Origin: Verrucomicrobiota bacterium
GTDB taxonomy: Bacteria; Verrucomicrobiota; Verrucomicrobiia; Limisphaerales; JAHEOI01
Length of the DNA: 35,308 nt
Assembly (NCBI GenBank): GCA_018610125.1
Contig: JAHEOI010000383.1
Coordinates: 1 to 35,308 of the forward strand
Direction: 5' to 3'
The notes beneath the pieces are model-generated. The model did not search any database and had not been told where the DNA came from. It was given only the letters and a program-made list of their open reading frames with translations. Shown here one piece after another: positions 1,278 to 8,503 of the stretch. The position numbers and the translations under genes are program-made. How positions within the stretch are numbered: the first letter of the stretch is position 1; every line of letters starts with the position of its first letter.

Positions 1278-1712
1278 CTACTGGCTAATTTCAACCAGCT
1301 CCACGTCAAAGAGGAGGTTCTTGCCGGCGAGCGGATGATTGGCATCCACTGTGATATTTTCCTCACCCACGTCGGTAATCACGAGTCGCATCTGCTGCCC
1401 TCCGTCTGTCTGGGCTTGCAAAACTTTGCCTTCTTCGGGCTGCACATCCGAAGGGAGCTGGCTCTTCGGCACCTGTTGGATGAGATTGTCATCCCGCTCA
1501 CCGAAGGCTTCTTCAGAGGAGAGCCGCACCTGTTTCTGTTCCCCTTGTTTCAGTTCCTGAACCGCGTTTTCGAGTCCCGGAATAATCTGGCCTTCACCAA
1601 TCGTAAACTCGATGGGGTCTCGATCGTACGACGAATCAAAGACGCTGCCATCCTCTTCGAGAGTGCCTTTATAATGCACTTTCACCTTGTTGCCTTCTTG
1701 TGGTGTTTCCAT
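1278..1712 (-). CDS. FKBP-type peptidyl-prolyl cis-trans isomerase (SlyD-like)
   Basis: METPQEGNKVKVHYKGTLEEDGSVFDSSYDRDPIEFTIGEGQIIPGLENAVQELKQGEQKQVRLSSEEAFGERD...; start taken at internal Met; ORF extends to 1760. Confidence 0.93.
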   Translation of the reverse strand: METPQEGNKVKVHYKGTLEEDGSVFDSSYDRDPIEFTIGEGQIIPGLENAVQELKQGEQKQVRLSSEEAFGERDDNLIQQVPKSQLPSDVQPEEGKVLQAQTDGGQQMRLVITDVGEENITVDANHPLAGKNLLFDVELVEISQ

Positions 1713-1992
1713 TAGATCTGTCTTATTTGGTTTGGTCTTCGGGATCTTGATCGCGCTCATTTCCGCACTGGCGCAGTCAGCTGCTACCTTATCAATCCAT
1801 GCGGTCTTGCCCGATCCCGTCCATCGTGCGTCGCCCGGCAGCTCAAATCGAAACCGTGGCGGGCGCCCCTGGCACTATCCCGACTTACCGTTATTTCAAT
1901 CACCCTAAGAGCAAGCAAGGGATACATCAAGCAGCCATTTGGATCCGTCGTTTCTGCCACGCACGAAGCGTTGCCGAGACACGTGAGACGGA

Positions 1993-4521
1993 TCAGCCGG
2001 GTAATCTATCATACCGCGCGGCGTACCGTTTGAGCAATGCCGACGCAACTTCCTGCCAGATGTGGACCTTTTCAAATGAGTCCAATACCAGCTCCTTTTG
2101 CGGAATCAGCAGGCGATACCACGACGAATCATGCAGTAGCTCCCAAATTGCTTCCTTAGAGATCGTCAAGTGATACCAAGCCCGCTCCACCTTGAAGCGA
2201 TGCAGCTCAAAATAGAGTGCGTCCAGATCAAGCAGGCAGACATGCTTGGCGGTCAGGTGCCCTTCGTTCCGGCCTTTTTCGACGTTACCGCTCCGGATAT
2301 CTTGAGACCTTATGGCCTGAATCTCGGGGTACCAGTTGAGCACCACAGGGCTTTCGATCAGGTGTTGGGTTGGCTCGTCGTGCTCCGCACTCGGCTTTCG
2401 AAGGGTCAGGATCATCCCCCGCTTCATGGAAGCAGTGCCCGGTCTTGTGCTCACGGGCTTGCTCGTTTTGACCGAGCGTGCGGCATGATGTCCGAGGAAC
2501 GATACGCCTTCGTCTTCGAGGAAGTCGCGGAACCGCGCCATGTAATCGGCTTTGATGCCGAAGATATTAAGAGTCTCAAGCTCACGCATTTCCTCGGGAG
2601 GCTCGACTTCCTCCGGCAATTGCACCTTGCTGCTCCGCTTCAGGCACCGGTCGTACCCTTTCAACCGCACACCTCGACCAAAGAGCTGAATGATTTGAGA
2701 TCCCTCTCCGCTTCCGACGTTCATCAGCCCCATCGTGCTGACCCGCCAACTATCCCAGCCCTCGGTAAACTTCTTGGAGCCGATAAGGAGGTTGACCGTC
2801 GAGCTTGACTTGTTGATATCCCGAAAGAGAGATCCCGAGAAAGCCCGTTCGGTGACGACCAGCTCTTCCCGTTCGTCGCACAATTTGCAGAGCTGGGTGT
2901 CATTCCCCACGTTGATAACGCCAAACGGCTGACTGTCGCTTCCAAGCTTTAACGCGATTTCCCCTGGTGCCCCCTTTAGATTTTCCAAATGCAACAAGCC
3001 GCCGGCCGGGTTGTTGAACAAGGATGCAAGGATGGCATCGAATACCTGCTCCGCTGAGAGGTGGCAGTCATTCAGGTAACCGAATCGACCGGCAAAGATG
3101 TCCCGCCCATCTGCGTCACGCACTCCGTCATTCAGCACCCGAGCAATCCGTGCGACACTACCTTGCCGATCGCCAATGAATCGCGCCAGGAAAAGCAAAA
3201 TTTGCAGGATGTCGCTTGCCTCCTTCTTGCCCAGTCCGGCAGTCACACCCCCTCCGACAAAGACCCACAAAGGCTTCTCAAGATGGAACGGCCTCAATCG
3301 CTCTTTGTGCTTACGAAAGAGCCGTTGCTGCTGGTAAAAGGCAAGCAGACAACCGACAAGATACAATTCACGATCGTTTTCCGACGTGGCCTTGCCCGAC
3401 GTTGCCTCGGTGAGGTCGAGGTTCAGAATCTGAAAATCCTTGCCATAGCCATCGCTGTAAAAGAAGCGGTAGGAGTAGTCGAAAAGGACAGACCGAGCAT
3501 AATGATTGCTCATTCCCCTATCCCCTTTCACTGCCTGCCCGAACGTCGCCGAGTATTCAAACGAGAAGCCGTTCTCACACAACGCGTTTCGAAAGCGCAT
3601 CCATGCCCCCTCCTTGCCCCGAGTGGCACCTCGGTGTCCCTCATCAACAAGAACGAGATTATTTCCCTCAAAGGCATTCACGGCGATCGTCTTCTCACCC
3701 ATCTCGCTGCCGAGCTTGTGAATATCGATGATCTCAATCTCTTGCCATTCGCGGTGATGCCGCCCGTCCTTCCGGAACAGCCCGGCCCGCATTCCCGCTA
3801 CATCAAAGGCCTCAAGGTGCTGCCGACTCAGTCCCTCATTCGGCGTCAACAAGAGAATCCGGTTCAAGGGAGCGTGATTGCCATGCTTCTCTGAGTAGTG
3901 CCGATACTGGAGAATATTCATCTGCATGACGAGGGTCTTGCCCGAGCCGGTCGCCATCCAGTAAGCAAGCTTATTAAGCTGATGTCGTGCGTCGGCTTCC
4001 TCATTCATCGGAGGGACTCGATCCGAAGCCGGATGCGTGGCATTGTACGCCTCGATTTGCCGATTAAGGCTCTTCACCAAGGCATCGGGATCACGGAAAT
4101 AATGATCGAGGAAGACCTCGGTAAACAACAATGTCAGGTATTGAAAGTACTTCCACGTAATCGACTCTTCTCCCTTCACCAATCGAGCCTCGTTTAGCTG
4201 CCGTGTGTGCCGGACAATATTTCGGTCATACGCCAACAGGACTTCAGGTGGCAGCGTCTCACTGTTTTCCATTCGATCAGCGAGGGCGTAATAAAAATGG
4301 TGCACATTATTCTCATCCAGACCTTCGATTGCATCCGTGTCGATGCCGAATTTTTCCTTGAAAGCCCCCAGCAATGGCATTCGTCCTCTCGGATCGTCGA
4401 CATAGCCGTCGCTTGATTGGAGACCAAACAGTGTAAACAGCCACTGGTTGAGCGCCAGTTTGCGCGCGAAAGGCACCTGTTGCCGGTCATCACCCCGTCG
4501 TTTGGTCTCTCGCTTGGTCAT
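1993..4521 (-). CDS. Type III restriction enzyme Res-like DEAD/DEAH helicase subunit, apparently C-terminally truncated
   Basis: Walker A MATGSGKTLVMQMNI, DExH-type VLVDEGHRG, SATFG, helicase motif VI-like IQLFGRGVRLKG; 50 bp downstream of Mod. Ends ...ALLKRYAARYDRLPG*. Confidence 0.88.
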   Translation of the reverse strand: MTKRETKRRGDDRQQVPFARKLALNQWLFTLFGLQSSDGYVDDPRGRMPLLGAFKEKFGIDTDAIEGLDENNVHHFYYALADRMENSETLPPEVLLAYDRNIVRHTRQLNEARLVKGEESITWKYFQYLTLLFTEVFLDHYFRDPDALVKSLNRQIEAYNATHPASDRVPPMNEEADARHQLNKLAYWMATGSGKTLVMQMNILQYRHYSEKHGNHAPLNRILLLTPNEGLSRQHLEAFDVAGMRAGLFRKDGRHHREWQEIEIIDIHKLGSEMGEKTIAVNAFEGNNLVLVDEGHRGATRGKEGAWMRFRNALCENGFSFEYSATFGQAVKGDRGMSNHYARSVLFDYSYRFFYSDGYGKDFQILNLDLTEATSGKATSENDRELYLVGCLLAFYQQQRLFRKHKERLRPFHLEKPLWVFVGGGVTAGLGKKEASDILQILLFLARFIGDRQGSVARIARVLNDGVRDADGRDIFAGRFGYLNDCHLSAEQVFDAILASLFNNPAGGLLHLENLKGAPGEIALKLGSDSQPFGVINVGNDTQLCKLCDEREELVVTERAFSGSLFRDINKSSSTVNLLIGSKKFTEGWDSWRVSTMGLMNVGSGEGSQIIQLFGRGVRLKGYDRCLKRSSKVQLPEEVEPPEEMRELETLNIFGIKADYMARFRDFLEDEGVSFLGHHAARSVKTSKPVSTRPGTASMKRGMILTLRKPSAEHDEPTQHLIESPVVLNWYPEIQAIRSQDIRSGNVEKGRNEGHLTAKHVCLLDLDALYFELHRFKVERAWYHLTISKEAIWELLHDSSWYRLLIPQKELVLDSFEKVHIWQEVASALLKRYAARYDRLPG

Positions 4522-4571: not shown

Positions 4572-7500
4572 TCACCCCTCAAACATGAGTCGATGGAAGT
4601 CCTCCTCGATTAACCGAGCTTTCCAGGTGTCATCCGCGGCTCGCACGACTTCCAGATTGTGATCGCCGTTGACGTAAATCAGGTCCAAGTCGTGGTCGCG
4701 TCCGACCAAGCCCCTCCTTTTGAGCCACTCATTAAGAACCAAGTTGTCCTGTTCGGCTCCTTCCCGAGGACCGAGCTCGATCGCCTTCGGCATTTTTCTC
4801 CAGATCACCAGTGCTCGCTTACCGTCAGGCAGCGTCCCCCTGACCGTCCGGAACCACCATAAGTCTCGGAGGTCGCCTGTCGGGTCCGGCTCCAAGGGTC
4901 CCTGAAGCCCGAGGTGCCCTTCTGGCGATCGCTCAAGGGCCACTGTAACAGTTTGCGGCGCCGCGATGTGCTCCACTCGCAGCCCGATAAGATAGTTGAA
5001 CGTCTCCAGCAGATCGATTTGGGTCTCTCGGCTCGCCCCACTGCCGGCCGGCTTCACTTTGAGCTTGTAATTCGTGGGGTCCAAGAAGGCGTCGATGTTC
5101 AGCAAGGAATTACTGCCTCGCGTCTCAACATCAAGGAAGTAACGAAGCAGGTATTGCTCCTTGAGTCCGCCGTCCCCTTGGGCCTCGGTTGACGCCAGGG
5201 CGTTCCGCCGTGCCTCGGTCCGGTTTAATTCCAAGTTATTGAGTGTGTCCTCGTACGACTCGAGGCGGAGGTATTTCACGACTTGAGAAAGGCCATCCTC
5301 GCTCTTTGGACGCCCCTCTCTCCAGTCACTCGAGTAAGCCGCCTTTACTACGCGCGGTTTCGTCACCGTATCGAAGTAATCCCCCATTTCCACGAGCAGA
5401 TACCCTCGGCTCCCGCCGTCTTGCCTGTTCAGACTGATCACGGCGTGTGCGGTCGTTCCCGAGCCCGCAAAGTAATCAAAGATCATGTCGGCGCTGTTCG
5501 ATACGGCAAACACGCAGTCCCTCACCGTATAGAGGGATTTCGGGAAATCAAACCGCCCTTTTTCAAAGCCCATATTCGTCAAAACCTTGGTACCATAATC
5601 GCCTGCGTTGTACCGGGACCCGTACCATACGGTCTTGAACTGGGTATCCGCCTTGGCCTTCATAATCCGGAGGTGACCGGATCGCGCCTTGTCTACCTTC
5701 AAGTGACGTTTGATTTTGGCCACCGTCTCGCGGGCATACCGCCATTTTCGCTCGACACCGTCCGCATCGACCGGATACACCGCGACGGTTCCATCGTTCA
5801 TTTGCACGTTCGGCCGGGCGGGATGGAAATCGTCATCGCACACATCGCCGAATCCGACAATCTTGTGGTCCTTCACATAAATCGGATAGAAGCAATTCCT
5901 CCCATCGTGGCGCAGCGACTCACCACCCCAATTTCGAAGGTTCGCGTATTCCCATTCCGTTTCGGGGAGCTCTGCCCGATTCAACTCGGCCAATTCCGGT
6001 GAGAGAACAAACACGGCAAAATCGTTTGTGTAGGAGAAATAACGCCCTTGCACTCCTTTACGATTGTGCTCGATTGCCACTGTTGTGATCGAACAATCAG
6101 GAAACATCTCCATACAGATTCGCTCAAGTCCGTTGCGCTCGTTCTCGTCGATCGCAATGACACATGAGCCATCTTCGGTCGACAACGAACGGGCAGCCTC
6201 GAGGCGATCGTGCATCAACGAAAGCCAAGAAGAATGCTTATAATTATTTTTGTATGCGATCTCGCTTGATAGCGAATTGTAAGGCGGGTCAATGTAGGTA
6301 CATTTGACGCCCTTCTCATAGCGTCGCTGCAATAATCGGATCGCTTGATAATTCTCCCCCTGCACCAGGAGTCCGTTTGTTTGATCTTCCAGCCCATGTA
6401 GGTTCTCAAGAATGCGCGCAGCCATCTCTTTTGGGAAAAGTGCCGTGTCGAGAGGGAGATAGGGATGCGCCCGCAAGAAATCCGTTGTCAACGGCTCCGA
6501 ATACCCGAACTTGGCCTTGAGGTTATCAATTTTAAACAGTCGAGCCCATTCCCTTCGCTGAGCATCATTTTGGGCAATCTCCGGATAAAACGCCTCAGGG
6601 ATGCGGTCGAGGGTAATGCAGTAATGGGCTTCAACGACAAACTTTTTCTTGAGCCAAAGCTTCTTTTGAAATTCTTCGAGCTGAGCGAGGAATTCGATAA
6701 TCTTATGGGCGATCTTTCGAATCACTTTAATTTTCGACAAACACTGCTCCAGTCGCGAGCCCGCTCCCGACTCCAGATCGTCCAGGTGCATGACCTCGTT
6801 TTTCACATAGAAATCGAGCTCCCGCCGAAGAAACCCGCCAAGATCCTTATGGATGAAATAATCAAAACTGTTTCTAGCGACAAATCGTTCCAGATGAGCC
6901 TTTAAGCGGCTGTAGCCGACCCGCTGACCGTTCGTATTGATTTCGGGCTTGGCCAACTCCGCCATCCATGGACGCAGAGACTCCGCCTCGACTGCCAATA
7001 GCTGATTAACCATCCGCTCGGTCAACTCCTTCTGTTTCGGCGGCTTCGGGCGCTTTTGACGCTTTTCTTGGCTCTTTCGCTCGTCCTCCGGCCAATCGCC
7101 CATTCTCGCCGGACGATCCTCAAATCGGATGACAAGCTCCCCCACCTCCTCAACGATCGAAGGTTCGCTCGCAAGCACCAGTACCCGATCGCCGTCGGCG
7201 GCCTTAACATTGTCGTGTTCCTCTTCCACCGCCCCCACCAAACGAAACCGCACTCGCATCGGATTTTCGTGGCTTTCGTCGTCTTGATGAGGCTTAAGTT
7301 TGAAGACGTAGTCGCTGAGAGACCGCCCGCTTTTGATATAGTATTGGTCACGATTGGCCCAGTGGAGCTTGACTTCTTCGCCCTCGTACGGAATCGCGTA
7401 GACGCCCGGCTTGTAGACGCGGTTGGGCAGAAAATCGCCATCTTGATAATAGCGACGGAAAAAGCGATAGAGGTGATCATAGACCTCATTCTCAAGCTGG

Positions 7501-7721
7501 GCGATATCCGTGCCTTTTTCGAAGGTGTCGGTGTCCTCCTTGGACGGACATTGTTCTTTGAAGGCCTCGCGGACCTGTGGCAGCAGCTCGTTATCCAGGA
7601 AATGGGTGATCTCGCCGGCCTTGACATGCATGATCCGATAGAGACCGAAATCCAGCTCGGGCCGGTCGAGCTGAAACAGCTCCTTCAGGAGAAGTATGAG
7701 CTGGTCGTGTTTCCGGCTCAT
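4572..7721 (-). CDS. Type III Mod-like adenine-specific DNA methyltransferase (beta-class motif order)
   Basis: TYIDPPYNSLSSEIAYKNNYKHSSWLSLMHDRL (motif IV DPPY) precedes MIFDYFAGSGTTAHAVISLNR (motif I); long N-terminal region of about 470 aa (ELFQLDRPELDFGLYRIMHVKAGEITHFLDNELLPQVREAF...). Confidence 0.94.
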   Translation of the reverse strand: MSRKHDQLILLLKELFQLDRPELDFGLYRIMHVKAGEITHFLDNELLPQVREAFKEQCPSKEDTDTFEKGTDIAQLENEVYDHLYRFFRRYYQDGDFLPNRVYKPGVYAIPYEGEEVKLHWANRDQYYIKSGRSLSDYVFKLKPHQDDESHENPMRVRFRLVGAVEEEHDNVKAADGDRVLVLASEPSIVEEVGELVIRFEDRPARMGDWPEDERKSQEKRQKRPKPPKQKELTERMVNQLLAVEAESLRPWMAELAKPEINTNGQRVGYSRLKAHLERFVARNSFDYFIHKDLGGFLRRELDFYVKNEVMHLDDLESGAGSRLEQCLSKIKVIRKIAHKIIEFLAQLEEFQKKLWLKKKFVVEAHYCITLDRIPEAFYPEIAQNDAQRREWARLFKIDNLKAKFGYSEPLTTDFLRAHPYLPLDTALFPKEMAARILENLHGLEDQTNGLLVQGENYQAIRLLQRRYEKGVKCTYIDPPYNSLSSEIAYKNNYKHSSWLSLMHDRLEAARSLSTEDGSCVIAIDENERNGLERICMEMFPDCSITTVAIEHNRKGVQGRYFSYTNDFAVFVLSPELAELNRAELPETEWEYANLRNWGGESLRHDGRNCFYPIYVKDHKIVGFGDVCDDDFHPARPNVQMNDGTVAVYPVDADGVERKWRYARETVAKIKRHLKVDKARSGHLRIMKAKADTQFKTVWYGSRYNAGDYGTKVLTNMGFEKGRFDFPKSLYTVRDCVFAVSNSADMIFDYFAGSGTTAHAVISLNRQDGGSRGYLLVEMGDYFDTVTKPRVVKAAYSSDWREGRPKSEDGLSQVVKYLRLESYEDTLNNLELNRTEARRNALASTEAQGDGGLKEQYLLRYFLDVETRGSNSLLNIDAFLDPTNYKLKVKPAGSGASRETQIDLLETFNYLIGLRVEHIAAPQTVTVALERSPEGHLGLQGPLEPDPTGDLRDLWWFRTVRGTLPDGKRALVIWRKMPKAIELGPREGAEQDNLVLNEWLKRRGLVGRDHDLDLIYVNGDHNLEVVRAADDTWKARLIEEDFHRLMFEG

Positions 7722-7744: not shown

Positions 7745-8503
7745 CTATCGGCGTTTACCTCTCCGGTTTAACTCCACGCGCAGGAGCTGCGTCGTCCAGC
7801 GACGTCCTGTGCGAGTCCGGAATCCCTCTTCATTGAGCACACTAACGATGTCCTGGAAGGGAACCCCGCCCTCACGCTCCCGCTCGGCTTTGACCATAGC
7901 TTGCTCGAATTGCTCCTTGAAGCGATCCTTAACACTGACATGCACTCCGCTATTCTTGTGGTCCTTCCCTTCACGTTTTGCGGCCGCGCGCGCCTCTTTT
8001 TCCTTCCGTTTTTCTTCCTTCTCGCGAGACTGTGCTTTCAAAGCCTCTTGCGCCCGTTGTTTCCTCACTTCAGCGTCCTGATTCTTAATTTCCCGCAGCT
8101 TCTCCTCCAACCACAAATACACCTGATAATAGGGCGGTCCCTCAGACGAGCTTGCGGCAATTTTTTGATCGATCGATGCAAAGTCAATGTGATATTCGCT
8201 ACTGTATACATACCGAGTCATTGATTTCGTTCCATGCCGGATGGCGGATGGGCCGCTATTCGAGAGGGTGCTCAGCACCTCGGTGCAGAACGGCATCAGC
8301 CATGCACGAGCCTGCTCCTCCGTGAGACCGGCATACTTGGACCACCAGGCCAGCAGCCCGGTAAGCTGAATGCGCGGCGGATGCGCCTTCTGAAGTCGGT
8401 CCGGCTCAGGCCCCTGTAGGATCAGCTTTTTCAACCAATATGGAACCTCCGTCTGGGTCCCGCTCAGGGCCTCTTGCAGTATTGTCAGATGTTTCTGTCT
8501 CAT
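7745..8503 (-). CDS. Small accessory protein of the R-M cassette; charged coiled-coil linker plus recombinase-like HTH C-terminus
   Basis: 252 aa; 23 bp upstream of Mod; C-terminus PFQDIVSVLNEEGFRTRTGRRWTTQLLRVELNRRGKRR resembles the LNxxGxxTRxGxxW motif of recombinase/HTH domains; K/E/R-rich central segment. Confidence 0.8.
   Translation of the reverse strand: MRQKHLTILQEALSGTQTEVPYWLKKLILQGPEPDRLQKAHPPRIQLTGLLAWWSKYAGLTEEQARAWLMPFCTEVLSTLSNSGPSAIRHGTKSMTRYVYSSEYHIDFASIDQKIAASSSEGPPYYQVYLWLEEKLREIKNQDAEVRKQRAQEALKAQSREKEEKRKEKEARAAAKREGKDHKNSGVHVSVKDRFKEQFEQAMVKAEREREGGVPFQDIVSVLNEEGFRTRTGRRWTTQLLRVELNRRGKRR

What the first reader, a model, noticed from the sequence alone, without database searches (positions are those of the whole stretch)
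1993..4521. Res subunit appears to lack the C-terminal nuclease domain
Seen: Res ends at 842 aa with ...VHIWQEVASALLKRYAARYDRLPG*, followed by about 230 bp that shows no recognisable continuation before the FKBP start. Established (from memory): Res homologues paired with long Mod proteins of this type usually continue about 150-200 aa after this ALLKxY segment into a PD-(D/E)XK-like region (pattern like FYPDF..W...DPKG). Helicase motifs I, II, III and VI remain. Inference: restriction may be disabled, leaving a methyltransferase plus translocase, or cleavage is supplied in trans.
Basis: partly seen in the sequence, partly recalled or inferred. Interest (0 to 1): 0.6.

Follow-up and report, generated by a model that had tools for sequence, protein, structure and literature searches.

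The report
Type III restriction enzyme missing its nuclease
A bacterial DNA-modifying defence system has lost the DNA-cutting end of its restriction protein, so it can probably still mark DNA but no longer cut it; such decay of this enzyme class is already known and this is an ordinary example.

Summary
The Res ORF (1993-4521, minus strand, 842 aa) matches Type III Res proteins only up to residue 837, then has five unrelated codons and a stop. All 41 uninterrupted relatives collected are 1017-1322 aa and carry a further ~250-aa domain with F(Y/H)PDF...W...DPKG. The window has no trace of it in six frames. A nuclease profile found it in 5 of 5 control genomes and nowhere in the rest of this MAG (388 contigs, about 73% complete). 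So the coding DNA is absent; this is not a point stop or a frameshift. The cut falls inside a helix that in the nearest relative continues into the nuclease lobe, and the protein nests among nuclease-bearing relatives. Both points indicate a secondary, accidental truncation rather than an evolved short family. Mod keeps DPPY and FAGSG, and the motor keeps its helicase motifs. Best reading: a deletion or rearrangement removed the 3' end of res, leaving a probably modification-only (r-m+) system whose motor is purposeless or decaying. An assembly or binning join cannot be excluded without reads. Inactivated res beside retained mod is published for Neisseria, Haemophilus and Helicobacter, so novelty is low.

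The parts
1993..4521 (-). Truncated Type III Res (SF2 motor): residues 1-837 homologous to full-length Res, then 5 unrelated residues and a stop
1993..2010 (-). Foreign tail DRLPG plus stop; homology to Res ends at codon 837 (2011-2013)
3934..3954 (-). Helicase motif I, ATGSGKT (residues 190-196)
   Evidence: G192, G194, K195, T196 invariant
3634..3645 (-). Helicase motif II, DEGH (residues 293-296)
2665..2688 (-). Helicase motif VI, QLFGRGVR (residues 612-619)
2416..2499 (-). Linker after the motor (around residues 675-702), about 14-19 aa shorter than in relatives, in frame and diverged; no trace of a compensated frameshift
4572..7721 (-). Mod, N6/N4 adenine-type methyltransferase, 1049 aa; N-terminal loop shorter than in relatives
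6279..6290 (-). Mod catalytic motif DPPY
5457..5471 (-). Mod AdoMet motif FAGSG
1761..1992 (-). Sequence after the break: no nuclease remnant in any frame; single copy in the MAG
1278..1760 (-). FKBP-type peptidyl-prolyl isomerase next to the break (probable start nearer 1712)

Best explanation
A horizontally spread Type III restriction-modification operon (mod then res) lost the 3' part of a normal res gene by a deletion or rearrangement whose join lies at about window 2010. The remaining gene makes a motor without a nuclease. Mod probably still methylates, so the cell would be modification-positive and restriction-negative, and the truncated Res is most likely functionless or decaying. Shown: the domain is absent from the contig, the motor and Mod motifs are kept, the break is inside a (predicted) helix, and the protein nests among nuclease-bearing relatives. 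Inferred: the deletion itself, loss of restriction, and continued methylation.
For: 41 of 41 uninterrupted relatives have the domain. No remnant in six frames of the window and none elsewhere in the MAG, with 5 of 5 positive controls. Window residue 837 aligns to residue 841 of the Methylohalomonas relative, inside a helix predicted at 820-853; in the window model the final helix stops at 838. The tree puts the window sister to that relative (98/92), with an end branch of 0.61 against 0.23-0.31 for neighbours. Relative-rate counts go the same way (1.2-2.3 to 1; controls 1.05-1.55), though not always significantly. 102 of 106 near-invariant columns kept against 105-106 of 107-108 in near relatives. 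Mod keeps DPPY and FAGSG and 86 of 91 invariant columns. Precedents.
Against: The remaining 842-codon frame is intact and its helicase motifs are perfect, which a long-dead gene would not keep; the truncation must then be fairly recent or the motor still selected. The rate excess is modest and partly shared by Mod. No relative closer than about 60% identity was found to date the event. Reads were not available, so a mis-join is possible.
Confidence: 0.68

Rival explanations
1. Assembly or binning artefact: two unrelated pieces were joined at about 2010, and the real genome has a full-length res.
For: The window is from a MAG of 388 contigs, 72.6% complete. The break is abrupt and lies about 2 kb from the contig end. 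The FKBP past the join has no close match in 285 other genomes of the order at E 1e-30, its best matches lying in other classes of the phylum.
Against: G+C is even across the join. The junction DNA is single copy, with no alternative contig path. No orphan nuclease end was found on another contig of the MAG, though the bin is incomplete.
Confidence: 0.22
2. A working nuclease-less system: Mod guides the motor to unmodified DNA, and translocation, roadblock or a nuclease in trans gives the defence.
For: Open frame, intact motifs and in-frame indels only. A motor with a separate nuclease protein exists in the CglI/NgoAVII systems (PMC4267653).
Against: No adjacent or genomic nuclease part found. 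No relatives share the short form. The truncation is inside a helix. EcoP15I work suggests the nuclease lobe helps form the sliding clamp (PMC11142916).
Confidence: 0.06
3. Mod has been kept for gene regulation by methylation, as in phasevarions with inactive res.
For: Mod motifs intact; published cases with inactive or deleted res.
Against: No phase-variation repeat was found in or upstream of mod. Nothing links it to a regulon, and the Mod rate is not clearly slower than that of Res.
Confidence: 0.04

Closest known systems
Type III R-M systems with inactivated res beside an active phase-variable mod (N. meningitidis, N. gonorrhoeae, H. influenzae, H. pylori; PMC2667262, PMC3230613)
   Same: Mod kept, Res broken; includes a 250-aa in-frame res deletion in N. 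gonorrhoeae and truncated res in H. pylori
   Different: Here the nuclease DNA is missing from the contig, and no phase-variation repeat is seen at mod
PADLOC REase_III PDLC03654 with MTase_III PDLC03646 (long-Mod Type III systems)
   Same: Same gene order and domain plan; both proteins score strongly
   Different: The last ~280 profile positions of Res are missing
EcoP15I (Mod2Res1)
   Same: Mod plus SF2 motor; normal C-terminal nuclease lobe with PD-ExK site (PMC11142916)
   Different: No nuclease lobe; no sequence-level match to a solved Res structure was found
CglI / NgoAVII
   Same: ATPase motor without a fused nuclease
   Different: Those have a separate PLD-type nuclease, a 5mC methyltransferase and a different helicase family; none seen here

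Membership tests
Type III restriction-modification system (functional) | Mod with DPPY and FxGxG motifs | tested here: met
Type III restriction-modification system (functional) | Res with SF2 helicase motifs (ATGSGKT, DEGH, SAT, QLFGRGVR) | tested here: met
Type III restriction-modification system (functional) | C-terminal PD-(D/E)xK nuclease lobe in Res | tested here: not met
   absent from window and MAG, present in all 41 uninterrupted relatives
Type III restriction-modification system (functional) | ATP-dependent cleavage between head-to-head sites; methylation of one strand | not testable with these tools
   needs biochemistry or a methylome
Phasevarion (phase-variable mod with inactive res) | Simple repeat tract switching mod | tested here: not met
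   only short 8-11 nt units, two copies each
CglI/NgoAVII-like split nuclease system | Separate nuclease gene in the operon | tested here: not met
   operon neighbours are an HTH_62 protein and FKBP

The most novel reading that the evidence does not exclude
The short Res is a stable, selected motor that works with Mod without any nuclease, for example blocking or remodelling unmodified foreign DNA by translocation alone.
Probability: 0.05. Interest if true: 0.5.

Novelty: new member of a known kind. Interest (0 to 1): 0.15.

Why it matters
It is a clear example of decay of a Type III system in an uncultured bacterium, and it warns that calls of 'Type III R-M present' from Mod and motor hits alone can count systems that cannot cut. 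Beyond that it is ordinary.

Tried and rejected
Premature stop or frameshift with the nuclease still encoded downstream: rejected, no remnant in six frames. A conserved short clade: rejected among the 41 uninterrupted relatives and the plasmid records. A compensated frameshift in the shortened linker: no support, other frames score no better than codon shuffles. A repeat-mediated deletion scar: no significant direct repeat at the break and no second copy in the MAG. A stable hairpin or terminator at the break: z = -0.81, nothing. Viral contigs: no match. Fold search of the models against the PDB gave only generic SF2 helicases at low TM-score, so it was not used. Sequence search of the PDB found no relevant relative. 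The empty site could not be shown, because the family has only this one genome.

Full report
Observation. The Res ORF runs from 4521 to 1993 on the minus strand and gives 842 aa ending ...ALLKRYAARYDRLPG*. Pfam finds only the ResIII/DEAD motor. PADLOC's REase_III model PDLC03654 (1154 positions) is matched up to position 874 by residues up to 837. Mod, upstream at 4572-7721, matches MTase_III PDLC03646 and the N6_N4_Mtase domain.

Relatives. One scan of one-per-species genomes gave 21 loci. All 21 Res ORFs continue past the ALLKxY segment, for about 250 aa, through F(Y/H)PDF..W...(F/I)xDPKG or a close variant. Searches of 293, 384 and 388 genomes of the same order, class and phylum added more. 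Of all relatives, 41 have an uninterrupted ORF reaching the position of the break; they are 1017-1322 aa by stop-to-stop ORF and all match nearly the full nuclease profile. Interrupted or contig-edge copies exist. In G359 the gene is split but the nuclease is kept. In G200 it is split and the nuclease half carrying PDF...DPKG is gone. So decay of res is seen elsewhere in the same order. Plasmid records that match across the Res also match the C-terminal part directly next to it.

The domain is really absent. tblastn of 13 relatives' C-terminal parts against the whole window gives significant hits only at the last ~24 residues before the break. The nuclease profile, run with filters off on all six-frame fragments of at least 12 residues, gives nothing but one E=5 chance match far away. 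In the whole MAG neither one relative's domain nor the profile is found, while the profile finds 5 of 5 control genomes. The MAG is 72.6% complete, so absence from the organism is not proved.

Nature of the break. Homology stops at codon 837 (window 2011-2013). The last five residues, DRLPG, have no counterpart; the aligner scatters them. In a structure prediction of the nearest relative, the matching residue 841 lies inside a helix at 820-853 that leads on to the nuclease lobe; the window's own model ends in the cut helix 817-838. Both models have modest confidence (pTM about 0.5) and are used only for local secondary structure. A cut inside a helix speaks for an accident rather than a domain-wise design. 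No repeat scar, second copy or special structure marks the join.

State of what is left. All helicase motifs are kept. 102 of 106 near-invariant columns are retained, against 105-106 of 107-108 in the nearest relatives. The linker after the motor is about 14-19 aa shorter, in frame, with no sign of a frameshift pair. On a tree of residues 1-837 the window is sister to the Methylohalomonas protein (98/92), inside a group spanning Acidobacteriota, Spirochaetota, Actinomycetota and Pseudomonadota, which implies horizontal spread. Its end branch is 0.61 against 0.23-0.31 for its three nearest single neighbours. Relative-rate counts lean the same way but are not uniformly significant, and Mod leans partly too. 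This fits relaxed constraint since the loss but does not prove it. Mod keeps DPPY, FAGSG and 86 of 91 invariant columns.

Mechanism. In Type III enzymes Mod2 recognises the site, the Res motor uses ATP to start sliding, and head-to-head meeting lets the nuclease lobes cut (PMC11142916). The nuclease lobe may also form part of the sliding clamp (same paper). Without it, cleavage cannot occur and long-range sliding may fail as well, while methylation by Mod should not need it. Hence the best reading is a modification-only remnant. That methylation continues is inferred.

Comparison. Inactive res with retained mod is published: inactivating res mutations in H. influenzae and N. meningitidis and a 250-aa in-frame res deletion in N. 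gonorrhoeae (PMC2667262), and truncated or frame-shifted res in H. pylori (PMC3230613). There the mod gene is phase-variable; here no repeat tract was found. As a member of functional Type III systems, this one fails the nuclease feature.

Verdict. Real in the sequence as given, most likely a secondary truncation, with an assembly join as the main rival. Ordinary in kind.

Caveats.

Noticed in passing
window 7745-8503 (-): A 252-aa protein with a recombinase-like HTH_62 domain sits 24 bp upstream of mod. None of the Mod-Res relatives' loci has it; three genomes of the order have distant relatives away from Mod-Res, one next to a gene that looks like tyrosyl-tRNA synthetase.
   Followed up: partly
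L030 (G200, same order): A second broken Res: the gene is split into two ORFs and the PDF...DPKG half of the nuclease is missing downstream.
   Followed up: partly
window 1278-1760 (-): The FKBP gene past the break has no match at E 1e-30 in 285 other genomes of the order, but about 50% identity to genes in other classes of the phylum, so it may be horizontally acquired or mark a join.
   Followed up: partly
window 4572-7721 (-), residues about 56-68: The Mod N-terminal region lacks roughly 30 residues present in the nearest relatives.
   Followed up: no
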